A DNA stretch of 64,000 nt from NCBI RefSeq assembly GCF_026240635.1, contig NZ_CP110848.1, forward strand, positions 4,111,741-4,175,740, written 5' to 3'. Every line of letters starts with the position of its first letter. Position 1 is the first letter of the stretch. Of this stretch, positions 4,612 to 24,438 are shown one piece after another. This DNA is from Trichothermofontia sichuanensis B231 (lineage in GTDB: Bacteria > Cyanobacteriota > Cyanobacteriia > B231). The notes under the pieces were generated by a model. It was not told where the DNA came from, ran no database searches, and worked only from the letters and a program-made list of their open reading frames with translations. A program made the translations under genes and the position numbers.

Positions 4612-6687
4612 ATGGAAGTTTCCTTCAACATGACCCTGCTCATGGTCTTAACTGTGATTGCGGGGATTAGCGCCCAAGTCCTGGCCGAGTACCTGCGGGT
4701 TCCCGGCATCGTTTTTTTGTTGTTATTTGGCATTGTGCTGGGACCCAGTGGTCTGGGGGTTCTGCATCCCACACTTTTGGGCAATGGCCTAGAGGTGATC
4801 GTGGCCCTGTCCGTCGCCCTGATCCTGTTTGAAGGGGGTCTCAACCTGGAACTGCGGGAGTTGGGCCGGGTGTCTACCAGTTTGCGCAATCTGGTGACGA
4901 TCGGGACCCTGATTACCCTGGTCAGTGGGGGCATGGCGGCCCATTGGTTGAGCGAATTCCCCTGGCCGATCGCCTTCCTGTTTGCCTCATTAGTCGTCGT
5001 CACAGGCCCCACGGTCATCAATCCCCTCTTGCGGCAGGTAAAGGTGGATCGTTCCGTGGCCACGCTCCTGGAGGGGGAAGGGGTCCTGATCGATCCCGTG
5101 GGGGCAATCCTGGCGGTGGTGGTGCTGGATATTATTCTCAATGGCGATACGGAGGTGTGGTCGATCGTCAGCGGCTTGTTGCTCCGCCTGGGGATTGGGG
5201 CGGGCATTGGGGCGGCGGGAGGCTGGCTGTTGGGGGAGTTCCTCAAGCGATCGCGGTTTTTAAGCGAGGGGCTGGCGAGTTTAGTCGTTCTGGCCTGGTC
5301 GTGGGGTCTCTTTGGACTGGCCCAAAGTATTCAGGCAGAGTCAGGACTGATGGCTACTGTAGTGGCCGGGATTGTCCTGCGGGCCTCGGAAGTGCCAGAG
5401 GAACGGCTGATCCGGCGGTTTAAGGGGCAATTGACGATTCTTTGCGTATCCGTCCTTTTTATCCTGTTATCGGCGGATTTGTCGATCGCCAGTCTGTTTG
5501 CCCTGGGATGGGGGGGACCCTTGACGGTGTTAACCCTGATGTTCCTGGTGCGGCCCCTCAACGTCTGGCTTTGCACCTGGACCAGTCACCTCACCTGGCG
5601 ACAAAAATTGTTCCTCAGTTGGGTGGCTCCGCGTGGGATTGTCTCGGCTTCTGTGGCGTCCCTGTTTGCGATTTTACTAACCGAGAAAGGCATCAATGGT
5701 GGCGACTCGATCAAAGCACTCGTGTTTCTCACGATTATCCTGACGGTTTTCTGTCAGGGCCTAACGGCAGGGGTGCTGGCGAAAATTTTGGGGATTACCT
5801 CCACCCAGGCCACGGGGGCCGTGATCGTTGGCTCCAATCCGGTTAGCCGTCTGATTGCCCGTCTGTTCCAGGAACGGGGGGAATTTGTGGTGCTAATTGA
5901 TAGCAATGCCGAAGCCTGTCGCGAGGCCGCCGAGAAAAATCTCCGCTCCTTTGTCAGCAGTGCCCTGGATGCGGAAGCCCTGGAGAAAGCCGGCCTCCCG
6001 CAGGTGGGAACTTTCCTGGTGCTCACCAGCAATGGGGAAGTCAACGCCGTGGTCGCGGAAAAAGCGGTTGAAGAGTTCCAACCCCCCCGCACCCTCGCCC
6101 TCTTCCCCCCCGATGTGGATACCAGTACCCATGCTAGTAAATCCAAGGTGCAGCAAGCCTTTTTACCTGGCCTATCCCTGAAAGTCTGGAATGACTATAT
6201 GAGTGAGGGCAGCGTCAAGTTGGGGGAAACGGTGTTGCGGGAACAGGGGTTTTTGTTTCAGCAGGCCCACCTCAAGGCATTGATCCGCTCCCAGGAACTC
6301 TTGCCCTTATTGCTGGAACGGGAGGACCAACTCCAGGTGATCGCGGCCTCCGATGAATGGCGGGCAGGCGATCGTATCATCTACCTGCTCCATGCTCCCA
6401 AACCGGTGCTGTTAAAGCGTCTATCTGGCGACAGCAAACAGGACTTGCTCAGCCAGCAGGCCGATGTTCCCTTGGTGCTGGAAAAACTGCCCGCTGTGGA
6501 AGAAGTGCCAGTGAGTTTCCCGTTCCAAGATCTGACGATTCCCAGCCCACCCCCTCCCTCCACTGTGCCCGTTAGCGCTGCGTCTGCGCCGGCGAGTGGT
6601 AACGGACAGGTGACAACGCCCCCATCTGTGACACCGGCGATGAACCCCGATCGCCAACTCCCCAAACACCCTAGTCAGACACCCTAG
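4612..6687 (+). CDS. CPA1-type cation:proton antiporter with cytoplasmic TrkA-N domain
   Basis: Exchanges Na+ or K+ for protons across the membrane (691 aa). The N-terminal ~390 residues form about 12 hydrophobic segments of the Na_H_exchanger family, with acidic residues in the helix around EGVLIDPVGAIL and the signature LFEGGLNLEL. From residue ~400 a Rossmann-type TrkA-N domain begins (GAVIVGSNPVSRLIARLF, then acidic strand end VVLIDSN), suggesting nucleotide gating. Residues ~560-610 look like a TrkA-C region. The C-terminal ~60 residues are a Pro/Ser-rich tail. It is a single gene. The transported ion cannot be read from sequence. Confidence 0.88.
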   Translation: MEVSFNMTLLMVLTVIAGISAQVLAEYLRVPGIVFLLLFGIVLGPSGLGVLHPTLLGNGLEVIVALSVALILFEGGLNLELRELGRVSTSLRNLVTIGTLITLVSGGMAAHWLSEFPWPIAFLFASLVVVTGPTVINPLLRQVKVDRSVATLLEGEGVLIDPVGAILAVVVLDIILNGDTEVWSIVSGLLLRLGIGAGIGAAGGWLLGEFLKRSRFLSEGLASLVVLAWSWGLFGLAQSIQAESGLMATVVAGIVLRASEVPEERLIRRFKGQLTILCVSVLFILLSADLSIASLFALGWGGPLTVLTLMFLVRPLNVWLCTWTSHLTWRQKLFLSWVAPRGIVSASVASLFAILLTEKGINGGDSIKALVFLTIILTVFCQGLTAGVLAKILGITSTQATGAVIVGSNPVSRLIARLFQERGEFVVLIDSNAEACREAAEKNLRSFVSSALDAEALEKAGLPQVGTFLVLTSNGEVNAVVAEKAVEEFQPPRTLALFPPDVDTSTHASKSKVQQAFLPGLSLKVWNDYMSEGSVKLGETVLREQGFLFQQAHLKALIRSQELLPLLLEREDQLQVIAASDEWRAGDRIIYLLHAPKPVLLKRLSGDSKQDLLSQQADVPLVLEKLPAVEEVPVSFPFQDLTIPSPPPPSTVPVSAASAPASGNGQVTTPPSVTPAMNPDRQLPKHPSQTP

Positions 6688-6813
6688 TCCCGATCCCCTT
6701 CCCCCTCTCTGGTTCTGGGCAAGAGGGGTATTTCGTTATGCGGCTACTGTTGCCAAAAGTTTACAATTAGAAGGTCTTCCCCTGTTCTTACCCTGCTTTT
6801 TGGAGATTGCTCG

Positions 6814-8532
6814 ATGCTGCGCTTGGAACATATTAGTAAAACCTACCCCACGGGTGAAGTTTTGAAGGATATCAATTGGGAAGTCAAACCGGGCGATCGC
6901 ATCGGCTTAGTGGGGGTGAATGGAGCGGGGAAATCGACCCAACTGAAGATTATTACCGGGGAGATTGAACCAACCACAGGTAACGTTATCCGACCGGCGA
7001 ACTTGCATATTGGCTATTTATCCCAGGAGTTTGATGTTGATCCGAGTCGGACGGTGCGGGAGGAGTTGTGGCAGGTCTTTACGGCAGCCAATCAGGCCCA
7101 ACGCCAGTTGACCCAACTTCAGCACCAGATGGAGCAGGCAACTCCGGAGGCGCTGGAGGACCTCATTCACCAGTTAGATCGGGCGCAACGTCACTTTGAA
7201 GCCGTAGATGGATATGGTCTCGAAGCGCGGATTGAGAAGATTCTGCGGGAAATGGGGTTTGAGGCAGAAGATGGCGATCGCTTGGTGAGTGCCTTCAGTG
7301 GCGGCTGGCAGATGCGCATCAGTTTGGGCAAAATTCTCCTGCAGGAGCCAGATATTCTCCTATTGGACGAACCGATTAACCATCTGGATCTGGAAACGAT
7401 CGAATGGTTGGAAACCTATCTCAAGAACTTAACGACGCCGATGGTCATTGTGGCCCACGATCGCGAGTTTCTGGATCGGCTCTGTACGCAGATCGTTGAG
7501 ACCGAGCGCGGGATTTCGACCACCTACCTGGGAAATTACACGGCCTATTTGCAACAAAAGGCGGCCCAAAAGGAAGCCCAACTCAGTGCCTTTGAGCGAC
7601 AGCAGAAAGAATTGGAGAAGCAACAGGTATTTATCGATCGCTTCCGAGCCAGTGCCACGCGCAGTACCCAGGCCAAGAGCCGAGAGAAACAACTGGAAAA
7701 GGTGGAGCGCATTGAGGCCCCAATTTCCGATCTCAAAACCCTTCATTTCCGCTTTCCCCCCGCCCCCCGCAGCGGACGGGTGGTTGTGAAAATTGATGAT
7801 CTTGTCCATACCTATGATGACAAGGTCCTATTCCTGGGGGCCAATTTACTGGTGGAACGGGGCGATCGTATTGCGTTTCTGGGTCCTAATGGATCGGGCA
7901 AATCTACCCTTTTACGTTTGATTATGGGGATGGAGACCCCCACGGAGGGGAAAGTGCAACTAGGCGAACATAATGTCATTCCCAGTTATTTTGAACAAAA
8001 CCAGGCTGAAGCTCTGGATCTAGAGAAAACTGTCCTCGATACGATCCACGACGAAGTTCCCGATTGGAAAAATGAGGAAGTCAGAACCCTGCTTGGCCGC
8101 TTTCTCTTTAGTGAAGATACCGTTTTCAAACCAGTTAAAGCGCTTAGTGGCGGTGAGAAAGCACGATTGGCGTTGGCAAAAATGCTACTCCGACCAGCCA
8201 ACCTGCTTCTCTTAGATGAACCAACCAATCACCTTGATATTTCTGCCAAAGAGGTTTTGGAGGAAGCACTCCAGCACTACGATGGCACCGTCATTCTGGT
8301 GTCGCACGATCGCTATTTCATTTCCCAGGTAGCAACTAAAATTGTGGAAATTCGCGAGGGTGAATTCCAGGTCTATTTGGGCGACTATCACTACTACCTG
8401 GAGAAAGTGGCTGAAGAGAAGGAAAAAGCCCGACTAGCTGCGATCGCCGCCGAGAAGGCGGCAAAGGCAGCAGCGAAACGGGCAAAGCAGAAGGAAAAGG
8501 AAAAAGCCAAAAAGGCAGCTCGTAAAGGCTAG
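6814..8532 (+). CDS. ABC-F family ATPase (ribosome-associated type)
   Basis: Soluble protein (572 aa) with two ABC cassettes and no membrane domain, the layout of ABC-F factors that act on the ribosome. Cassette 1: Walker A GVNGAGKST, signature FSGGW, Walker B LLLDEPINHLD. Cassette 2: Walker A GPNGSGKST, signature LSGGEK, Walker B LLLDEPTNHLD. Between them is an Arg/Lys/Gln-rich linker (~residues 240-320) typical of the P-site-tRNA-contacting arm. The C-terminus is a Lys/Ala/Glu-rich helix ending KKAARKG. The E-Q type catalytic glutamates are present in both cassettes. The precise subfamily (Uup-like or YdiF-like) is not decided. Confidence 0.9.
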   Translation: MLRLEHISKTYPTGEVLKDINWEVKPGDRIGLVGVNGAGKSTQLKIITGEIEPTTGNVIRPANLHIGYLSQEFDVDPSRTVREELWQVFTAANQAQRQLTQLQHQMEQATPEALEDLIHQLDRAQRHFEAVDGYGLEARIEKILREMGFEAEDGDRLVSAFSGGWQMRISLGKILLQEPDILLLDEPINHLDLETIEWLETYLKNLTTPMVIVAHDREFLDRLCTQIVETERGISTTYLGNYTAYLQQKAAQKEAQLSAFERQQKELEKQQVFIDRFRASATRSTQAKSREKQLEKVERIEAPISDLKTLHFRFPPAPRSGRVVVKIDDLVHTYDDKVLFLGANLLVERGDRIAFLGPNGSGKSTLLRLIMGMETPTEGKVQLGEHNVIPSYFEQNQAEALDLEKTVLDTIHDEVPDWKNEEVRTLLGRFLFSEDTVFKPVKALSGGEKARLALAKMLLRPANLLLLDEPTNHLDISAKEVLEEALQHYDGTVILVSHDRYFISQVATKIVEIREGEFQVYLGDYHYYLEKVAEEKEKARLAAIAAEKAAKAAAKRAKQKEKEKAKKAARKG

Positions 8533-13644: not shown

Positions 13645-13863
13645 TTAAGAGGCTGAGTCCAGCAAATCAACTGTGAACGATTGTCCCCCCACGGTGACAC
13701 GATCGCCTGGCTTTAACTTACGCCCCCGCTGGGTGACCACTTCGCCGTTCACCCTGACCTCCCCAGCCTGGATCATGACCTTGGCCTGCCCCCCCGTGGC
13801 TGCCACCCCAACCCACTTAAGGAACTGGTCTAGTTTGATCGGTTTTGGGTTGCCCGGTTCCAT
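13645..13863 (-). CDS. Small S4-domain RNA-binding protein
   Basis: A 72-residue protein almost entirely composed of an S4 fold: IKLDQFLKWVGVAATGGQAK, then VRVNGEVVTQRGRKLKPGDRV. Single-domain S4 proteins of this YaaA/RlbA type bind structured RNA, probably rRNA. The frame is open upstream to 14097, but that part overlaps tRNA-His and is not protein-like. The ATG at 13863 (MEPGNPKPI) is the first sensible start; a GTG at 13884 is an alternative. It is transcribed towards the family A element and convergently with alaS. Confidence 0.82.
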   Translation of the reverse strand: MEPGNPKPIKLDQFLKWVGVAATGGQAKVMIQAGEVRVNGEVVTQRGRKLKPGDRVTVGGQSFTVDLLDSAS

Positions 13864-14050
13864 GTAGGGATGCTCCCTGTCCACTTGCAAGAGATACACT
13901 TTGCCTGCTGGCAGTATACGGGAAAACCGCCCTAGGATGGATAAAGCAACAACCGTGGAATTAGGGAGCCGTCCAGTTTGGTAACAAGTCGTCCTTAGCC
14001 AATCTAGATCGATGCGTGAGCAAGCTGCTATACTAAGGAACGCGATGAAT

Positions 14051-14124
14051 GGCGAGCGTAGCCAAGCGGTTAAGGCAGTGGATTGTGGATCCACCATGCG
14101 CGGGTTCGAATCCCGTCGTTCGCC
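14051..14124 (+). tRNA. tRNA-His (GTG anticodon)
   Basis: A 74-nt cloverleaf. The acceptor strand GGCGAGCG pairs with CGTTCGCC, the anticodon stem-loop has TTGTGGA with anticodon GTG, and the T-arm contains GGTTCGAATCC. The first G is the encoded G-1 that pairs with C73, the identity element of tRNA-His. CCA is not encoded. Confidence 0.95.
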
Positions 14125-14178
14125 CTAAAGATCATCTGTGGACTCTGAATGTTGAAGACGTCGAGACAGCGATCACCA

Positions 14179-14805
14179 CTATGCCAGATTGAGCAATCGC
14201 TTCAAAATCTGAACAACCTGGTATAGCTGATTTTCCCGACGCAGGGAGAGGGTAAACTTATCTGACCAGTCATAACGGCGCTGCTGCGGGTCAAGCTTAA
14301 TAAACAAGTAGTCTTCCCCGGTAGTAATTAGCCCAAATAGGGGCCGCTGCTCCGGGTTCGCCATCATGTAAGCCAGGGTTTGAGGTAGCGCCTGCATGAC
14401 ACTGAAGCCGTACCGCTTGGTTTCCAGGACAACCAGCCACACCTGTTCCCGAAGGATCAACACATCAATCAGTCCTTCCAAACGACGATCACCGTCTTCG
14501 ATCTCGATTTTGATGTATTTCTCGCCCCGAATCCAATAGGGGGGATCATACAGTCCTAATAACTCCAATAGCGGTGCCACAATAATGAGGCTCACAGTAC
14601 TTTCGGTAATGGCCCCCCCCGCCTGGTAATAGCGGTAGCGATCGCGGAGTCGATCCAGTAAGGCACACTCCGCTGCGGTTAGCGCTGGCAAGTCAGTCCG
14701 CCACTCTGGAAAAAAGTCTGGGTCATCCGTAGGACTGAGATGAAAAGCAGCATGAACCTCATGGAGGTTGGTAATGGCCTGGGTAACCCCGATCGTTGTC
14801 GTCAT
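14179..14805 (-). CDS. PD-(D/E)XK nuclease-like protein (HSDR_N-like)
   Basis: A 208-residue soluble protein. Residues ~105-125 read LEGLIDVLILREQ then VWLVVLETKR, the D-x(n)-E-x-K spacing of the PD-(D/E)XK nuclease fold, as in the N-terminal domain of type I restriction subunits. It stands alone with no helicase, methylase or specificity subunit, so a role in restriction is not supported. The family occurs as solitary genes in cyanobacteria. It is divergent from the operon starting at 15042, with a 236-base gap containing a short TAACGGCATAGTTT tandem at about 14811-14838. Nuclease activity is inferred from the motif only. Confidence 0.75.
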   Translation of the reverse strand: MTTTIGVTQAITNLHEVHAAFHLSPTDDPDFFPEWRTDLPALTAAECALLDRLRDRYRYYQAGGAITESTVSLIIVAPLLELLGLYDPPYWIRGEKYIKIEIEDGDRRLEGLIDVLILREQVWLVVLETKRYGFSVMQALPQTLAYMMANPEQRPLFGLITTGEDYLFIKLDPQQRRYDWSDKFTLSLRRENQLYQVVQILKRLLNLA

Positions 14806-15041
14806 GGTCTAACGGCATAGTTTAACGGCATAGTTTGACTGAAGTTTGGGCAGGGTAGGCAGGTTGGAGGTGCGGCTGGATCGAGACTGGCTCAGTCTAG
14901 TTCGCTAAGCACTCACCCTGGTATTCGTTTGCTTCAATCATAACGGCTGTTGCCATCGGTAATCCCCGACCCCTCCAACAAATCCCCCAAGATGCTGCTA
15001 CGATCGCCCTATCCCTACGCAAGTAATCTTGGGCAACACAT

Positions 15042-15848
15042 ATGGAGTCAACCGCGAAATCCCCCGATCAAATGGTGATTACGGAGGTTAATGCCACCCT
15101 CAAACGACTCTTGAAACACTGGGAAAATGTAAAGAAAGCGCAACAAAGCTGGGACTTTAAATCCTCGGATCAGGTGCTAACCGCGTTCACAGAAGACATC
15201 GAGCGCCTCGTCCAATCCTGGCCTGAATCGGAGCAAATTCTCCGTACCGCGATCGCCCAGGATCAAGCCTTTGTGTTGTCGGCTGACTATCCCAGCGCGA
15301 TCGCAGCGGCCTTTGCTGCGGTGGATGTGCCCCTCCAGGGCGAGTTTCCCACCTATGAATTTCCGCCCTTCAAGCTGACCTTTTCGCCAGAGAATGGCTA
15401 TGTGCGGCTCAGTATTGGTCGCCAATCGCAACAAACCCGTCTCTTTGCCCCCGATGGGTTAGCTGCCTGGGTAGCGGTACAATACAAACAGGTGGTCAAC
15501 AGTAGTTTTAATGCCGATCGCTTCTGTCGTGATCTGCTCAGTGCCTACGAGATTGTGAACCGTCTGGCGCTGAAACAACCGGAGGTTGCCTGGGGACACC
15601 CCGTTCCCCTCAAGGATATTTATAAGCTGCTCACATTGAAGCAGTCTGCCCGTCAAGATTATCCCGAATCCCTATTTATCTACGATCTCGCCCGTCTCAA
15701 GGAGCAATTTGACATTAGCTATCACCAATATCGGTTTGAACTGGTGCCTTCGCGCAATGCGGCTAAGGGACTGCTTTTACGGGACAGCAAAGGTCAAGAA
15801 AGTCGAGTTGATGCCTTGATTATTTATGCCAACGATGACACGGATTAA
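15042..15848 (+). CDS. Unknown protein encoded with BrxD-like ATPases
   Basis: A 268-residue soluble protein I do not recognise. The N-terminal ~75 residues are predicted helical with several Trp residues; the centre (~95-150) is beta-rich and aromatic. No catalytic motif or zinc site is visible. The start at MESTAKSPDQ follows GGGCAACAC. The 3' end overlaps the next gene by 14 bases when that gene starts at 15835, so the two are translationally coupled and probably act together. A partner or substrate adaptor of the ATPases is an inference from position only. Confidence 0.78.
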   Translation: MESTAKSPDQMVITEVNATLKRLLKHWENVKKAQQSWDFKSSDQVLTAFTEDIERLVQSWPESEQILRTAIAQDQAFVLSADYPSAIAAAFAAVDVPLQGEFPTYEFPPFKLTFSPENGYVRLSIGRQSQQTRLFAPDGLAAWVAVQYKQVVNSSFNADRFCRDLLSAYEIVNRLALKQPEVAWGHPVPLKDIYKLLTLKQSARQDYPESLFIYDLARLKEQFDISYHQYRFELVPSRNAAKGLLLRDSKGQESRVDALIIYANDDTD

Positions 15849-17064
15849 CCCAGCAGATCTGGAGCAGTTACAGCAGGGCATCCCGCCCAGTGATCCTGCC
15901 TTGCTCACCCAGATGACCCTGGGGCGCGAAGTCTGGCTCGATCGCGTCCAGGAGCATTACCTGGAAAACTACCTGGCCGATGGCGGCAGTAAGGTCAAAG
16001 TCCTGGTGGGCGAAGCGGGGACGGGCAAAACCCATTTGCTGCGATCGGTCGCCCAGGATGCCCAGGCATTGGGGTATGCAACCGTCTACCTCTCGGCGCG
16101 GGATCACAAGCTCAATGACCTGCCGGGACTGTACCGGGCGATCGTGGCCCAATTAGATCTGGATGCCCTTGTGCAAGGCTTGTGTGGCTATGTGGCGGCG
16201 AAACTGGGCTATGGCCGCGATCGCTACGATGGCCAGGGGTCACTGGTGCCGCTGATCTGTGAGGAACAGTTGCTCACACGAGATCAGGCGATTCGCGAAA
16301 TCAACCGGGCCAAGGCCAACGCCTTTCATACGATTGATCTGGGGACTTCCTTCCGCACTTTTGCCCACCATGTCATTACCAGTCATTTGATTCATGGGAA
16401 CGAGGCCGATCTGGCCCTAGGGCTGAAATGGTTGCGAGGCGAAAAGTTAGAACGCCACGAAAAGCAGATTACCCACCTCTTTGAACGTCTCAGTCGCACC
16501 ACAGCCCGTGCCTGGTTAAATTGCCTGATTCGATTGTTGCAATTGGCCGGAAAAACGGGGTTAGTGGTGGCGATCGATGACCTGGAGGTAATGACGGAAC
16601 ATTCGCCCATTACCGGGCGGTTTATTTATACGCCCAATGCGATCAAAGATGTGTGTGAACTCTTCCGCCAACTGATTGATGATGTGGAACTACTCAGCCA
16701 TTTCCTGTTGCTCCTGGCAGGGCGTCCACCGTTGATTAATGACGAAAAGCGGGGTTTCAAGAGTTATGAAGCCCTCTGGATGCGGTTGCAAACAGGGTTG
16801 GTGCCCATTGGGAGATTTAATCCTTTGGCGGATATTGTCGATACTGATGCCCACCTGCTAGCCAATGGTCGCGATTTTGCTGAAGCTGTCCACGGCAAGC
16901 TGCTAACCCTGTTTAGCGATGCCAATTTACCCCTGGAGTTGGATTATGACCAGGTACCCGATCTCAGTGAACAGGGGCCACTGCGATCGGCGGTAATCAA
17001 AGCGACGTTGATGGTGGAGTCTGCCCTCACCCCCGGCCCCTCTGCCCAGGGCGAGGGGAGATGA
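15835..17064 (+). CDS. BrxC/BrxD-like P-loop ATPase, first of a pair
   Basis: AAA-like ATPase (409 aa from 15835; an ATG at 15826 is also in frame). The Walker A motif GEAGTGKTHLL lies at residues ~59-69 and the Walker B motif LVVAIDDLEV follows at ~245. The arrangement, including the long helical insertion and the late LLAGRPPLI sensor-like strand, fits the DUF2791/BREX ATP-binding protein family. It overlaps the upstream unknown gene by 14 bases. The last ~14 residues (ALTPGPSAQGEGR) and the stop codon are encoded by a 44-bp GC-rich repeat that is tandemly duplicated just after. No BREX methylase, PglZ or helicase is present nearby, so calling it BREX is not justified. Confidence 0.78.
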   Translation: MTRINPADLEQLQQGIPPSDPALLTQMTLGREVWLDRVQEHYLENYLADGGSKVKVLVGEAGTGKTHLLRSVAQDAQALGYATVYLSARDHKLNDLPGLYRAIVAQLDLDALVQGLCGYVAAKLGYGRDRYDGQGSLVPLICEEQLLTRDQAIREINRAKANAFHTIDLGTSFRTFAHHVITSHLIHGNEADLALGLKWLRGEKLERHEKQITHLFERLSRTTARAWLNCLIRLLQLAGKTGLVVAIDDLEVMTEHSPITGRFIYTPNAIKDVCELFRQLIDDVELLSHFLLLLAGRPPLINDEKRGFKSYEALWMRLQTGLVPIGRFNPLADIVDTDAHLLANGRDFAEAVHGKLLTLFSDANLPLELDYDQVPDLSEQGPLRSAVIKATLMVESALTPGPSAQGEGR

Positions 17065-17110
17065 AGGCCCTTACCCCCGGCCCCTCTGCCCAGGGCGAGG
17101 GGAGATGAAG
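17023..17110. repeat. Two tandem 44-bp GC-rich repeat units
   Basis: The unit GCCCTCACCCCCGGCCCCTC...GATGAAG runs 17023-17066 and again 17067-17110 with a single C/T change visible. The first unit supplies the stop codon and last residues of the upstream ATPase; the second lies in the spacer before the next ATPase. Confidence 0.85.
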
Positions 17111-17148
17111 TAGATACGTTTTTTTTTTGCGTTGTGACCTGATGTCCT

Positions 17149-18429
17149 ATGCCAACCTACTCGGAACCTCGTAAACAGGCGATCGCGGTGATTGAGTCCC
17201 TGCGGGCGGGGATTCCCACGCGGGTCTCGACCCGTGAACTGCCCGATCTGCGGGAATCCTTAATCGAGCAAATTGCTCAGGATCTACGCCGGTTAGCCGA
17301 TGGCAATCCGCCACCCGGTCGCCTGCTGTGGGGGGCCTATGGCCAGGGGAAAACCCATGCTTTGACGGCAGTGGAACACATGGCCCTGGATGAGGGCTTT
17401 GCAGTGAGTCGCCTGTCCCTCAGCCGGGAGGTGTCCTGCCACCATTTGTTTAACTTCTATGGTCGGGTGGCGATCGCCCTTCGCACGCCCGATTCGCAAA
17501 TCCCAGGCATTCAACAAGCCCTCGATCGTCAGGAACCGGGCAACCTCATCGATAGTCCCATCCTTAATCCGGGACGCTATGTCCATCCCCTACCCGCGAT
17601 CGTCCTGGAGGACTATTTCTATGCAGCGGGCGAAGACCGGGACCTGCTCTACGGCGATCTGATGGGAACCCGGCTGTCCATGCTGGAACTGCGACGGATG
17701 CATCGCCTCAACCGGGGGGAAACGATGCCGCGCTTTGAGGAAAATTTCCGTGTGGCCCAACACGCCAGTGCCTACTTTGGGCTGATGGCGGATGCGCTGG
17801 TGTGGTGTGGGTATAAGGGCTGGGTGATTCTGATTGATGAGGTGGAGTTGGTCGGTCGGTTGGGCCGGGTCAGCCGCCTGCAAGCCTACCGGAATCTCAA
17901 CTGGCTGCTCAACTGGTCGAAAAATATGCCCTACCCGATCTATACCCTGGGGGTGGTGGCGTCCAGTTTACGAAATGATGTCTGGTTCAGTGGGGCGGGC
18001 GCAATCGAGGCTAAACCCACGGGACGGCAGGCGCGGATTGATAGTGTCCAGATCCCGGCCCTGGCGGCAGAACGAGGGGGACCGGAATTGGCACTGGAGA
18101 TGGAGAATTTTTTCAAAATGGCGATTAATAGCCGTCAATGTCCTTCGATCAAGCTGATTAGGGATAGCGATTTAGAGAGTTTGTTGGAGCGTCTGCGGGA
18201 GTTGCATGGGGTCGCCTATGATTGGTCGGCGCAACTGGATGTGGACAGTTTGCGGCGCAAGGTGAAGGAAACGGGGAGTCAACCGATTCGCACGTATATT
18301 CGGGCGGCGCTGGAGGTGTTGGATATGGCCTATGTCTATCGGGAGGCGATCGATTTACAGGTAGATCGGCTTCAGGAAGCGGCCCTGACGGAAGATGAGA
18401 GTTATTTTGTGCCGGCAGCGGATGAGTGA
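17149..18429 (+). CDS. BrxC/BrxD-like P-loop ATPase, second of a pair
   Basis: A 426-residue ATPase of the same broad family as its neighbour but clearly diverged. The Walker A motif GAYGQGKTHAL starts at residue ~62; the Walker B motif WVILIDEVELV lies at ~225. The GAYGQGKTH form is close to that of BREX BrxC/BrxD proteins. The N-terminus REPEATs are absent; residues 1-55 resemble the substrate-binding lead-in seen in DUF2791 proteins. It is 84 bases downstream of the first ATPase, with a T10 run just before. The pair may form a hetero-oligomer; that is inference. Confidence 0.78.
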   Translation: MPTYSEPRKQAIAVIESLRAGIPTRVSTRELPDLRESLIEQIAQDLRRLADGNPPPGRLLWGAYGQGKTHALTAVEHMALDEGFAVSRLSLSREVSCHHLFNFYGRVAIALRTPDSQIPGIQQALDRQEPGNLIDSPILNPGRYVHPLPAIVLEDYFYAAGEDRDLLYGDLMGTRLSMLELRRMHRLNRGETMPRFEENFRVAQHASAYFGLMADALVWCGYKGWVILIDEVELVGRLGRVSRLQAYRNLNWLLNWSKNMPYPIYTLGVVASSLRNDVWFSGAGAIEAKPTGRQARIDSVQIPALAAERGGPELALEMENFFKMAINSRQCPSIKLIRDSDLESLLERLRELHGVAYDWSAQLDVDSLRRKVKETGSQPIRTYIRAALEVLDMAYVYREAIDLQVDRLQEAALTEDESYFVPAADE

Positions 18430-18616
18430 GGGGAGCGGTTAGGGTGTTGGATTCACCACCAAGACACGAAGGGGCACGAAGGGACGCGAAGGGAGGGTCG
18501 GTGTCCCCCACAAAACCAATTCTTCCTGATTGAGGATGACCCACGACGTAAGGAAAGGTAGAAACTTCTGTCCCCCAAGCCGCGTCCCAGGAAGTGTAAC
18601 GGTACCATTGGCAACC

Positions 18617-21505
18617 ATGACACAGGCTGGGTTACGGGACAGGGTGCAGGATCAGCGTTGGCGTACTGGGAGCAGAGCAGTGATTCAGGAGTTCCATCTC
18701 TCGGTGACCCCGCTGGGGGACGATGAGTACCTGGTGCGGACTGAGCAGGTTGCGCCAGGGGTGCCTCTGGCGGAAGAACAGGTGGCGTGGCCGATCGATA
18801 CCTGGCTACAACAGTCCCGTCAGTTAATGCAGGACCCGTTACTCAAGGTTTTGCAGGATAAAAAACAATTGGGAAGAGGGACGGGTGAACCGACGGTTGC
18901 GAATTTGGTCAGCTTTGGTCAAACCCTGTATAACCAATTGTTCCAGGGCACGATTCGCGACAGTTGGGTGACGGCCCAAGGGATTGCCTACCACCGCCGG
19001 GAACGCTTGCGGCTGCGGCTGGGCCTGAAGGGTACCCGGTTAACCCGCATTCCCTGGGAGGTGTTGCAGGGCGATCGCCCCCTGGCGACGGGGACGGATG
19101 TCATGTTTTCCCGCTACCAACCCACCCCGATCGCGCTGCCTTCACCGTTACTGCCCCACCTCCACCCCGATCTTCAGCAACCCCTGCGGGTATTGGTGGT
19201 TCTGGCGGCCCCAGAGGATCAGGAACGGCTGGCCCTGCGCCATGAGGTGGAAACCCTGCAAGCGGAACTACGACGGGTGGCCACCAGCAGTGAAATGGGA
19301 CCGCTCCCTGAGCTGGATTTAACGATTTTGGAACAACCCGGACGCGAGGCCCTGACCCAAGCCCTAGAACAGGGAGATTACCAAGTCCTGCACTATTCCG
19401 GTCACAGTAATGTGAGTGCCACGGGGGGAGAACTCTACCTGGTCAGTGGCCAGACGGGGTTAACCGAAACCTTGAGTGGTGAAGATCTGGCGGGGTTGCT
19501 GGTGAACAATGGCATCTGCATGGTGGTTCTGAACTCCTGTCGGGGTGCCCATGCCGCCAGTGAGGCGATTACCGACGATACGGCCACCCAGAGTTTGGCG
19601 GAAAGCCTGGTGCGGCGCGGGATTCCCGGCGTGTTGGCGATGGCCGAGCGCATCCCCGACTCAGTAGCGCTCACCTTAAGTCGGCTGTTCTATCGCAATT
19701 TGAAGCAGGGCTATCCGGTTGATCTCAGTTTGAACCGCGCCCGTCAGGGGTTGATCTCCGCCTATGGGTCCCATCAACTCTACTGGGCTTTGCCCATCCT
19801 CTATTTGCACCAGAATTTTGATGGCTTTTTGACGGTGCCAGCGCCCGCTGCCGCCGATCGCGAGGCTAACCTGGACCCACCCGAACCTATTGTCCTTGAA
19901 CCTGTCACCAATGCGACGGCATCAGAGGCCACGGTTCCGCCGCCGTCGGTCTCGTCTGTCCAGAGTCAGCGCGTTCCGCCGGATATGGCCAGCGCTGCCA
20001 GTTTATTAGCGATCGATGATACTGACACGCCGATTTCGCCCGAAGAACTCTCCAAAGCGGCTGAGTTAATTCGGCAGTTATCGGGGGGCGAAGCAGACAC
20101 GGACTTGGAAGAACCCCTCCTGGCTGCCGGCCACGAAAGCCTACTCCCTGATACCGCAACTGACTTACCGGCTTTTACGCTCGAACACCCTCTTCGAGAG
20201 GGGGATCATCCCGATGATCTCGTGGGGCCGCTGGCCTACCCCGGTACGGAGGCGGAACCGGAAGCAGGCTTACTGAATCAGCAACAGTTGGCCCATGTGG
20301 TAGCAGCCTATCGCCGGGAGGTGGCCCTGAACCCGAAGGATGCCAATGCCTATCACAAACTGGGGCTGGCGCTTTACAAACTAGGCGAGTACGAAGAAGC
20401 CGCCCAGATGTACCGGCAGGCGATCGAGCTAGACCCCAGCCGTAGTGATCTCTATCGCAACCTGGGAACGGCCCTCTATCGCCAGGGGAATATACCCGCT
20501 GCCCTAGATGCCTACAGCCAAGCACTAGAAAAGCTGTCCCATCCTGCACCGGCCACGGCCCTCTCCAGCCGCTCCCCGGCTAATCCGATCCCAAACCCCC
20601 TAGCCGCTTTCACGGGGGCGGCGACAGGTACCCCCACCCCGACCTCCCTGGGTAAACGACTGCCTCTCTGGTCAGTCCTGACCGTACTCGGCACCGTCGG
20701 TGCGATTGGGGTGGCGCTGACGGGGTTGGGGGTGATCCCTGGGGGGTTCTGGTCTGCACCTGTGGCCCGGATTGAGTCCTCCCCGTCGCCGGCGGCGCCA
20801 TTGTCTCCATCCCGGTTCCCCACAGACCCGCAGGAGTGGGCCAGTCAGAGTACAGAGGCTGTAACGGCGATCGCCATCGATCGCCTCAGCCATGCCGATC
20901 TAGATACTGGCCAACAGGCGGTTACAGCGTTGCTCGATCGTTCCGCCTTGGCTGAAGCTAGGGCTGCCCTCGCTACGGTACCCAACCGCAATCTGAGTGA
21001 TCCACGTGTGACGTTCCTGTGGGGACGGCTGATCTGGCAATCCTTGCAAACCGGTGATCCCCAAAACTACACGATCGACGACGCCCGCCGCTACTGGGAA
21101 ACGGCGGTGCGCGATCAACCCAATGTACCGGCCTTCCGCAATGCCCTGGGCTTTGCCTACCTAGCCGAGGGTAATCTGGAACGGGCCAACCGGGAATGGC
21201 TGCGATCGCTGTCCCTGAGCGAACAGATTCTGGCCCAGAATCCGCCAGCCCAAAACCAGCCCCTCCCTGCCGATATGCTCACTGCCTATGCCGGGATGGC
21301 GATCGCCCTGCACCAATCAGCCAACCAGCAACCCCCCGCCGTCCAGGCGAATCTGCGCAAGCGTGCCGACGAACTCTATCGCTTGGTGACCGCTCAGGCC
21401 CCCGACGCCTTCCAACTCGATAGCCTCCAGAAAAATTGGCTCTGGACCGAAGCCAGCATCCGCGAATGGCAGAGCCTCGGCCAAACCGTCGCCCAGCGGC
21501 AGTAA
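18617..21505 (+). CDS. CHAT-domain protease-like protein with TPRs and a membrane segment
   Basis: 962 residues from ATG 18617 (an in-frame ATG at 18530 would add 29 residues of doubtful quality). The CHAT (caspase-like, HetF-associated) domain spans ~residues 160-400. The His of the dyad is in HYSGH (last His ~263) and the Cys in NSCRGAH (~308); both are intact. A Pro/Ala-rich linker follows, then two to three TPRs (~575-660: AYHKLGLALYKLGEYEEAA and following), a hydrophobic segment (~710-735) that could be a single membrane span, and a further helical, TPR-like C-terminus. It lies 187 bases after the ATPase pair, so co-transcription is uncertain. Cyanobacteria encode many CHAT-TPR proteins; substrates are mostly unknown. 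Confidence 0.85.
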   Translation: MTQAGLRDRVQDQRWRTGSRAVIQEFHLSVTPLGDDEYLVRTEQVAPGVPLAEEQVAWPIDTWLQQSRQLMQDPLLKVLQDKKQLGRGTGEPTVANLVSFGQTLYNQLFQGTIRDSWVTAQGIAYHRRERLRLRLGLKGTRLTRIPWEVLQGDRPLATGTDVMFSRYQPTPIALPSPLLPHLHPDLQQPLRVLVVLAAPEDQERLALRHEVETLQAELRRVATSSEMGPLPELDLTILEQPGREALTQALEQGDYQVLHYSGHSNVSATGGELYLVSGQTGLTETLSGEDLAGLLVNNGICMVVLNSCRGAHAASEAITDDTATQSLAESLVRRGIPGVLAMAERIPDSVALTLSRLFYRNLKQGYPVDLSLNRARQGLISAYGSHQLYWALPILYLHQNFDGFLTVPAPAAADREANLDPPEPIVLEPVTNATASEATVPPPSVSSVQSQRVPPDMASAASLLAIDDTDTPISPEELSKAAELIRQLSGGEADTDLEEPLLAAGHESLLPDTATDLPAFTLEHPLREGDHPDDLVGPLAYPGTEAEPEAGLLNQQQLAHVVAAYRREVALNPKDANAYHKLGLALYKLGEYEEAAQMYRQAIELDPSRSDLYRNLGTALYRQGNIPAALDAYSQALEKLSHPAPATALSSRSPANPIPNPLAAFTGAATGTPTPTSLGKRLPLWSVLTVLGTVGAIGVALTGLGVIPGGFWSAPVARIESSPSPAAPLSPSRFPTDPQEWASQSTEAVTAIAIDRLSHADLDTGQQAVTALLDRSALAEARAALATVPNRNLSDPRVTFLWGRLIWQSLQTGDPQNYTIDDARRYWETAVRDQPNVPAFRNALGFAYLAEGNLERANREWLRSLSLSEQILAQNPPAQNQPLPADMLTAYAGMAIALHQSANQQPPAVQANLRKRADELYRLVTAQAPDAFQLDSLQKNWLWTEASIREWQSLGQTVAQRQ

Positions 21506-22656: not shown

Positions 22657-23666
22657 CTATCCCCAGTCTTCAGACAAGTCTATTCGCTTAATTTCACCGA
22701 CATCGCGATAAAACATACTGAGGCGCAAGGTGGTGGCCAGTTGTTGGACCAGCCAGATTCCTGCTACGGAGTTACCGTTCCTGTCTAGCGGTGGACTGTA
22801 ACCAGCAATGACTCCTTGACCGGGCACGATCGCCACCAGTGCCCCACTCACTCCCGACTTACAGGGCACTCCTGCCGTCACCGCAAATTGACCCGAATAC
22901 TCATAGAGGCCACACGTACTCATGATCGCCGTGACCACGCGGCAATGGGCTGGATCTAACCCCAGCGGTGGCATTACCAATAGCATTCCCAATCGAGTTA
23001 AATCCGCCACCGTTCCGGCTAAGCAACAAATTTGTTCGTAGGTATCCAGGGCAATGGCAGCGGGCTGAGCTAGGGAACCCGCAGCAGCTAGGTATGCTGC
23101 CAATGCCTGGTTGTCCAAATTGGGCTGCGATCGCACCGATGCCAAGATACCCGCATGAAGTTGGAGACGACTCCCCGCCCATTAGCCCATTAATTTAGCC
23201 ACCCACACAGGTGCAGACACTTAGCCTGGGGCATTTCACCCGGTAGCAAGGCCGCCAGCGCGATCGCGCCACTATTGAGCATGGGGTTGCGGGGAAACCT
23301 CCCATCGGCTTGGAGTTGGCTCAGGGCATTGAAAGGACGATCACTGGGGTCCATGCCCACATAGGTAAACACCGTCTCTGCCCCCTGGGTTGCCAGTAAA
23401 TAGACCAGTAAATAGAGGAGCAAGAACGGTTTAATCACACTCATTAGAGGAAAACGATGACCGCGATCGCCACACAGCAACCTGTTACCCTGACAGGTTT
23501 GGATCTGACAGGTTTGGATCGCGATCGCCAACCACTCTGGGTTAGCTTGAGCTAAGGCAGGAATATAATCCGGGAGGTTACCCGTGCGGGCCTGCCCTTG
23601 AGCCAAGGCAAACCAGGTATCGAGTTGGGCTGAGGTCAGGGTATTGAGATTAGGAGAAAATGCCAT
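22657..23666 (-). pseudogene. glsA: Glutaminase, disrupted by a frameshift and stop
   Basis: Serine-dependent glutaminase family (glutamine to glutamate plus ammonia). The N-terminal half (23190-23666, starting MAFSPNLNTL) has FPLMSVIKPFLLLYLL with the catalytic S-x-x-K and the NPMLNSGAIA motif. The C-terminal half (22657-23145) has SVRSQPNLDNQALA, CGLYEYSGQFA and GVPCKSGVSGALVA. The halves are in different frames. The break is an 8-bp tandem duplication of GCCCATTA (plus strand) at 23177-23192; a TAA lies at the junction in both frames. A 15-bp in-frame duplication (23490-23519) also gives QTCQIQTCQG. The start overlaps the upstream gene by 17 bases. It is very likely inactive unless the assembly is wrong here. 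Confidence 0.88.
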
Positions 23667-24438
23667 CGACTTCAGGACGATAGATGTAGTCGTAGTCAAA
23701 CACCAGCGAGTTCAGGTGGCGCAGGACCGAGAATCCGAAATGAGTGACTACATCACTCGTAAACGTCGCCATCACTAATTCAACCAATTTTCGCGGGGGG
23801 ATGTTAGGTTTTTGGATATAGTAATCACGCTTTGCGAAAAACATCTTTTCGTCACGGGGCACAATAATCCCATTGATACGATGGGCGTGTTGAATTGGCT
23901 TAATATAAGTTTGAATAAACGCTTCCTGATTCCGCTGAAGCCGATAGAGTTTTTCATGCTGTAGCCAACTCATCTGGAAGAGCATTTTTAATAACTCAAA
24001 ACCCAGCGCATAATTCAGAACATTATTCCGTTCTTCCATACTAATAACCAGACGCAGGGCCGATTCCAAATAAAGGTTGGGTTGGCGGTGAGCATCCTGA
24101 GCTGAGTGAATATAAAACTGACGAATATAATCCCGCAGCACCGCTTCCGTAAGTTCAGTATCAATGTGGAATTCCTGGAGACACTTGGCAACCTGCTGCC
24201 GATAGTCGCGATCGCTCAACATGCGTGAGACGATGCCATCTGCTGTGTAATCATCCAGAAACTCGGCCTGAACTTCCGGTGGAGCTGCACAAATGAGATG
24301 ACAAATCAGCAAGACATAGCGTCGTTTTTTCCACGGCAAACTTTCGAGCCAGTCTCTCGCCTCCGGCGGCAAACTGCCTAGGATACTGTCCAAACTGCTA
24401 GAATGTTTAGTCCGGGGGACCGATTGTATTTCCTGCAT
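23650..24438 (-). CDS. Conserved cyanobacterial protein of unknown function
   Basis: 262 residues from ATG 24438 (MQEIQSVPRT). The frame is open further upstream, but the first 58 residues are not protein-like. It is soluble, largely helical and rich in aromatic and basic residues, with a striking motif LPWKKRRYVLLICHLICA near residue 33-50 and a C-terminal FSVLRHLNSLVFDYDYIYRP. No known catalytic motif is recognised. It ends inside the start of the glutaminase gene (17-base overlap), an operon arrangement suggesting the two were co-expressed. Confidence 0.78.
   Translation of the reverse strand: MQEIQSVPRTKHSSSLDSILGSLPPEARDWLESLPWKKRRYVLLICHLICAAPPEVQAEFLDDYTADGIVSRMLSDRDYRQQVAKCLQEFHIDTELTEAVLRDYIRQFYIHSAQDAHRQPNLYLESALRLVISMEERNNVLNYALGFELLKMLFQMSWLQHEKLYRLQRNQEAFIQTYIKPIQHAHRINGIIVPRDEKMFFAKRDYYIQKPNIPPRKLVELVMATFTSDVVTHFGFSVLRHLNSLVFDYDYIYRPEVDGIFS

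What the first reader, a model, noticed from the sequence alone, without database searches (positions are those of the whole stretch)
14179..21505. BrxC/BrxD-like ATPase pair with an unknown partner, beside a CHAT-TPR protein and a nuclease-like gene
Seen: an unknown 268-residue protein overlaps an ATPase with GEAGTGKTH, followed by a second with GAYGQGKTH; then a CHAT protein with intact His/Cys dyad and TPRs. A divergent PD-(D/E)XK-like gene lies just upstream. Known: DUF2791-type ATPases are components of BREX defence, and CHAT proteases are effectors in some defence systems. None of the BREX hallmark genes (methylase, PglZ, helicase) is here. Inference: this may be a distinct ATPase-driven sensing module with a protease or nuclease output. 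The weak point is the 187-base gap before CHAT and the commonness of CHAT proteins in cyanobacteria.
Basis: partly seen in the sequence, partly recalled or inferred. Interest (0 to 1): 0.72.

Follow-up and report, generated by a model that had tools for sequence, protein, structure and literature searches.

The report
Mobile ORC-like ATPase pair with DNA-binding partner
Three adjacent genes, two ATPases resembling the proteins that start DNA replication plus an unknown protein with a probable DNA-binding end, travel together between distant bacteria and probably form a DNA-handling (perhaps anti-phage) machine, while the protease and nuclease genes beside them are unrelated neighbours.

Summary
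The unit is three genes: U (15042-15848), ATP1 (15826-17064) and ATP2 (17149-18429). Both ATPases belong to Pfam BrxC_BrxD; U matches no family. The U-ATP1-ATP2 order is kept in 42 distinct loci from Cyanobacteria, Firmicutes, Atribacteria, Armatimonadetes, Desulfobulbus and others. Only 9 of 386 cyanobacterial genomes have it, and the tree mixes phyla, so it spreads horizontally. The CHAT gene is hetF, a cell-division gene found in most relatives. The nuclease-like gene is a multicopy family. Neither lies near the trio in any of the other loci. U is predicted confidently (pLDDT 92) as a coiled-coil hairpin, a beta module and a C-terminal winged-helix-like domain. ATP2 is an ORC/Cdc6-type AAA+ ATPase aligning only to the part of ORC before its winged helix. 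In one lineage (13 of 13 testable loci) a fourth gene is an SF1 helicase; in one cyanobacterium it is a BrxHI/Shango-type SF2 helicase. The window has neither. Most likely: a split ORC-like DNA-binding ATPase that loads or licenses a helicase, probably in defence. The defence role is inferred. The genome has no PglZ, so this is not BREX; it also fails Shango membership.

The parts
15042..15848 (+). U: 268-aa protein of an unnamed family; predicted coiled-coil hairpin (res. 8-78), beta module (82-132), C-terminal winged-helix-like domain (156-264)
   Evidence: 38-member alignment, no Pfam family; AlphaFold2 pLDDT 92; C-terminal domain aligns to the ORC1 winged-helix region, Z 6.6, 81 residues (middling)
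15826..17064 (+). ATP1: BrxC/BrxD-type ATPase; real start probably 15835; invariant Walker A GxxGxGKTH and Walker B Asp251; next acidic residue not conserved
17023..17110 (+). Two tandem copies of a 44-base repeat that give ATP1 a foreign C-terminal tail (ALTPGPSAQGEGR) and separate ATP1 from ATP2
   Evidence: tail absent in homologues; the exact 30-mer occurs nowhere else in the genome
17149..18429 (+). ATP2: BrxC/BrxD-type, ORC/Cdc6-fold AAA+ ATPase with invariant Walker A and Walker B Asp230-Glu231 and conserved Arg243, Arg381, Arg385; no winged-helix domain of its own seen

Best explanation
The trio is a horizontally mobile module built like a split origin-recognition complex. ATP1 and ATP2 form a mixed AAA+ assembly in which ATP2 hydrolyses ATP and ATP1 mainly binds it. 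U supplies the winged-helix DNA contact that ATP2 lacks, and uses its coiled-coil hairpin to reach a partner. The complex senses or marks a DNA structure and loads, or releases, a helicase: an SF1 helicase with a topoisomerase-type zinc ribbon in the Peptococcaceae branch, a BrxHI/SngC-type SF2 helicase in one cyanobacterium, and an unlinked helicase or the bare clamp itself in the window's branch. The most likely purpose is defence against phage or other foreign DNA. Shown by computation: families, gene order, motif conservation, predicted folds, horizontal spread, purifying selection, linkage to helicases in some branches. Inferred: complex formation, DNA binding, helicase loading, defence.
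For: A U homologue precedes ATP1 on the same strand in 42 distinct loci, usually with overlaps or gaps under 40 nt, and ATP2 follows in 41. Both ATPases are PF10923 and hit BrxD and SngB profiles; they are homologous to each other (hhalign prob. 99.3). ATP2 model: best matches archaeal ORC2 and Cdc6/Orc1, Z 16.1 and 15.8, aligned to ORC2 residues 9-312 of 394, i.e. not to its last part. U C-terminal domain aligns to the ORC1 winged-helix region, Z 6.2-6.6. Walker B: ATP2 Asp-Glu in 32 of 32; ATP1 second residue D 25, N 5, E 2, S 1, G 1. SF1 helicase joins the trio in 13 of 13 testable loci of one branch; BrxHI/SngC-like helicase directly downstream in L053 (E 9e-99 and 5e-82). Patchy distribution, 9 of 386 cyanobacterial genomes, and phylum-mixing tree. 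Transposase insertion splits ATP2 in G091. dN/dS mostly 0.05-0.19. Published proposal that BrxD loads BrxHI (PMC12839542).
Against: No helicase or effector is linked in the window or in most loci of its branch, and none like the two linked kinds is in the genome. Flanking genes are mostly metabolic; defence genes within about 8 kb in only a minority of loci (type I methylase, SNF2 helicase, CRISPR, HerA/SspH-like, YprA-like), without a matched control. Not found in phage-like contigs or plasmids. The winged-helix match of U is of middling Z and Foldseek gave no significant hit. No complex was modelled.
Confidence: 0.5

Rival explanations
1. An accessory genome-maintenance module rather than defence: the ORC-like pair with U loads a helicase at stalled forks or damaged DNA of the host chromosome.
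For: Flanks are mostly metabolic genes; the helicase-linked four-gene form is found across many Peptococcaceae-type genomes; ORC/Cdc6 fold.
Against: Rare and patchy in cyanobacteria; tree mixes phyla; closest profiles are BrxD and SngB of defence systems.
Confidence: 0.27
2. A degenerate remnant of a larger BREX-like or Shango-like system that lost its helicase and effector and no longer works in the window's branch.
For: No linked helicase in this branch; foreign tail on ATP1 from the inserted repeat; disrupted copies exist elsewhere.
Against: Purifying selection on all three genes in helicase-less loci, dN/dS 0.05-0.17 in most pairs; catalytic motifs intact.
Confidence: 0.13
3. A target-selection ATPase set of a mobile element, working like TnsC or MuB.
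For: ATP2 also matches TnsC (Z 13.8) and MuB; spread is horizontal.
Against: No transposase is part of the conserved unit in the loci examined; ORC2 scores higher; no clear direct or inverted repeats bound the trio.
Confidence: 0.05
4. One reading: a four- or five-gene system with the CHAT protease or the PD-(D/E)XK gene as output.
For: Adjacency in this one genome; CHAT dyad intact.
Against: CHAT gene is hetF, widespread without the trio; nuclease family is multicopy; no linkage in any other locus.
Confidence: 0.03

Closest known systems
BrxD ATPase of Type-2 BREX (with BrxHI helicase)
   Same: PF10923 ORC-like ATPases without extra DNA-binding domain; in L053 the same kind of helicase follows (PMC12839542)
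   Different: Two different ATPases plus U; only 64 and 47 bits against the BREX_BrxD cut-off of 350; no PglZ in the genome
Shango (SngA TerB, SngB ATPase, SngC helicase)
   Same: Three genes around an SngB-like ATPase; SngC-like helicase in L053
   Different: U is not TerB, a second ATPase is present, and the window has no helicase gene in the unit
Archaeal and eukaryotic ORC/Cdc6 initiators
   Same: AAA+ fold (Z 16) and a winged-helix-like partner domain
   Different: Winged helix appears to sit on a separate protein; accessory, not essential; sequence identity 11-15%
HetF (cell division and heterocyst protein)
   Same: The neighbouring CHAT gene is a HetF homologue
   Different: Not part of the module

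Membership tests
PF10923 BrxC_BrxD ATPase family | Score above the curated cut-off (22.2 bits) | tested here: met
   ATP1 76.8 bits, ATP2 72.3 bits
NCBIfam BREX_BrxD equivalog | Score above 350 bits | tested here: not met
   64.2 and 47.2 bits
BREX (any canonical type) | PglZ gene | tested here: not met
   No PF08665 match in the whole genome
BREX (any canonical type) | PglX/BrxX methylase and large BrxC in the operon | tested here: not met
   Only the two short PF10923 genes exist in the genome; the adjacent genes are hetF and the nuclease-like gene
Shango | TerB-domain SngA in the operon | tested here: not met
   No TerB hit listed among 38 U proteins; the TerB genes of the genome lie over 200 kb away
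Shango | SngC DEAD/DEAH helicase in the operon | tested here: not met
   None in the window's unit; only one weak generic helicase match elsewhere in the genome. Met in the related locus L053
ORC/Cdc6-type AAA+ | AAA+ core and lid of ORC fold with active-site motifs | tested here: met
   ATP2: Z 16.1 to ORC2, Walker A and B invariant; ATP1 by homology only
ORC/Cdc6-type initiator | C-terminal winged helix on the ATPase | tested here: inconclusive
   ATP2 aligns to ORC2 residues 9-312 only; a winged-helix-like domain lies on U; ATP1 was not modelled
Anti-phage defence system | Protection from phage | not testable with these tools
   Needs an experiment
Anti-phage defence system | Enrichment in defence islands | tested here: inconclusive
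   A minority of flanks hold defence genes, no matched control
HetF (neighbouring gene) | NCBIfam HetF profile above 1200 bits | tested here: inconclusive
   832 bits, E 5e-250, below the equivalog cut-off but with no rival family and the catalytic dyad present

The most novel reading that the evidence does not exclude
A previously undescribed, phylum-crossing defence system: a bacterial split ORC (two AAA+ subunits without a winged helix plus a separate winged-helix/coiled-coil subunit) that acts alone in some hosts and carries exchangeable helicases (SF1 or BrxHI-like) in others.
Probability: 0.35. Interest if true: 0.8.

Novelty: new variant of a known kind. Interest (0 to 1): 0.52.

Why it matters
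BrxD-type ATPases are thought to load helicases in phage defence but, as far as I could find, this has not been shown. A minimal, conserved three-gene set with a probable DNA-binding partner, and with two alternative helicases in relatives, would let the idea be tested with four purified proteins. It would also show an ORC-like assembly in bacteria whose DNA-binding domain is on a separate subunit, and it gives a function hypothesis to a protein family with no name.

Tried and rejected
HetF or the PD-(D/E)XK gene as effectors: rejected by family identity and lack of linkage. BREX: no PglZ. Shango: no TerB in U. Empty-site comparison around hetF: 12 relatives show no shared gene order with the window apart from hetF itself, so the insertion boundaries could not be mapped. 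tRNA-His att repeats: none found bounding the trio. Trio in plasmids and viral contigs: none (one short 30-residue match is not a relative). Foldseek on U against PDB and viral models: no significant hit. Papers naming DUF2791/PF10923: nothing on this trio in the held library; older work on TerB/ATPase/helicase operons (Anantharaman, Iyer and Aravind 2012, from memory) could not be checked.

Full report
Check of the observation. Both ATPases match PF10923 BrxC_BrxD (76.8 and 72.3 bits, cut-off 22.2) and, more weakly, the BrxD and SngB models of PADLOC. They fall far short of the BREX_BrxD equivalog.

The two outer genes are bystanders. The CHAT-TPR protein scores 832 bits against HetF and keeps the His/Cys dyad (HYSGH at 259 and NSCRG at 306 from the ATG at 18617). 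HetF-like genes are found in 19 of 30 relatives at E<=1e-60; a homologue in Anabaena is a divisome component (PMC8406250). The nuclease-like gene belongs to a family with 8 match places in this genome and members in 16 of 30 relatives. Neither the HetF CHAT domain nor this nuclease is found in the 44 trio loci (607 kb) fetched from other genomes.

The trio is the unit. A scan of 84,980 genomes with ATP1 returned 36 loci, and a search of cyanobacterial genomes added six more. In all 42, a U homologue precedes ATP1 on the same strand; in 41 the gene for ATP2 follows (the L038 stretch ends before it). Gaps are mostly under 40 nt or overlaps. One locus (L022) has a 1.46-kb gap within or after U. 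Hosts include Cyanobacteria, Sporomusa, Peptococcaceae, Pelotomaculum, Thermosyntropha, Atribacteria, Armatimonadetes, Desulfobulbus and candidate phyla (several are metagenome bins).

Distribution. A profile of U finds nine convincing carriers in 386 cyanobacterial genomes (a tenth match is one weak partial hit). On a tree of both ATPases the window groups with Leptolyngbyaceae, Phormidesmis and Chroococcidiopsidaceae, next to Peptococcaceae, Sporomusa and Atribacteria, while other cyanobacteria lie elsewhere. This is horizontal spread. In G091 a DDE transposase gene splits ATP2. Pairwise dN/dS is mostly 0.05-0.19, except for one near-identical pair with too few changes.

Anatomy. U has no Pfam family among 38 members. 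Its AlphaFold2 model (32 sequences, mean pLDDT 92, pTM 0.77) shows a two-helix hairpin, a beta module and a C-terminal helix-helix-helix-strand-strand-strand domain. VIA-align places the last on the ORC1 winged-helix region (Z 6.2-6.6, about 81 residues), the middle on CapZ (Z 8.0, 73 residues) and the hairpin on coiled coils. These Z values are middling, and Foldseek found nothing significant, so the winged helix is a likely reading and not a proof. ATP2 (pLDDT 88) matches Aeropyrum ORC2 (Z 16.1, 277 residues) and other Cdc6/Orc1 chains; it aligns to ORC2 residues 9-312 of 394, the part before its winged helix. ATP1 and ATP2 are homologous to each other. In ATP2 the Walker B Asp-Glu is invariant in 32 sequences; in ATP1 the first Asp is invariant but the second position is D, N, E, S or G. 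That suggests unequal ATP sites, as in other mixed AAA+ assemblies (inference).

Helicase partners. In the Peptococcaceae-type branch an 861-residue protein with SF1 helicase domains (AAA_11, AAA_12) and a topoisomerase-type zinc ribbon joins the trio in 13 of 13 loci where the sequence extends far enough, 12 downstream and one upstream. In cyanobacterium G099 (L053) the gene directly after ATP2 is a BrxHI/SngC-type SF2 helicase. In the window's branch no helicase is linked; the genome has no relative of the SF1 protein at E<=1e-8 and only one generic DEAD-box match to the SF2 protein. Two loci (L017, L027) have a divergent SNF2 helicase next to U.

Mechanism. A 2026 survey classes BrxD as an ORC-Cdc6 ATPase without a DNA-binding domain and proposes that it loads BrxHI (PMC12839542). 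The trio fits an extension of that idea: U brings the DNA-binding domain, ATP1 and ATP2 form the ring or partial ring, and the helicase is the exchangeable output. Complex formation, DNA binding, loading and defence are inferred. Evidence for defence is the homology to BrxD and SngB, the mobility and a few defence-rich flanks; most flanks are metabolic, and no matched control was run.

Novelty. No paper in the held library names this trio, but the library is partial.

Noticed in passing
17023-17110: Tandem pair of 44-base repeats between ATP1 and ATP2 that alters the ATP1 C-terminus; the exact 30-base core occurs nowhere else in the genome.
   Followed up: yes
22657-23699: Two consecutive minus-strand ORFs look like the two halves of a glutaminase gene in different frames, a possible frameshifted pseudogene.
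   Followed up: no
13645-14125: The longest ORF of the S4-domain gene overlaps tRNA-His (14052-14125, opposite strand); its real start is probably further in, near 13860.
   Followed up: no
L054:5968-8349: In genome G091 the ATP2 gene of the trio is split by a DDE_5 transposase gene (6522-7904).
   Followed up: yes
L022:5843-7998: U homologue matches only residues 30-213 and is followed by a 407-aa ORF on the other strand before ATP1; probably another insertion.
   Followed up: no
L017:3778-6924 and L027:986-3991: Divergent SNF2-type helicase genes next to U; similar to DpdE/ZorD profiles.
   Followed up: partly
L046:3983-5887: Trio next to a CRISPR-associated TM1802-type (Cas8b-like) gene.
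   Followed up: no
L051:8859-14954: 2031-residue DEAD helicase with MZB (MrfA-type) domain near the trio in a cyanobacterium, resembling YprA-family defence helicases.
   Followed up: no
L020:9411-11639: HerA/SspH-like ATPase gene a few kilobases downstream of the trio.
   Followed up: no
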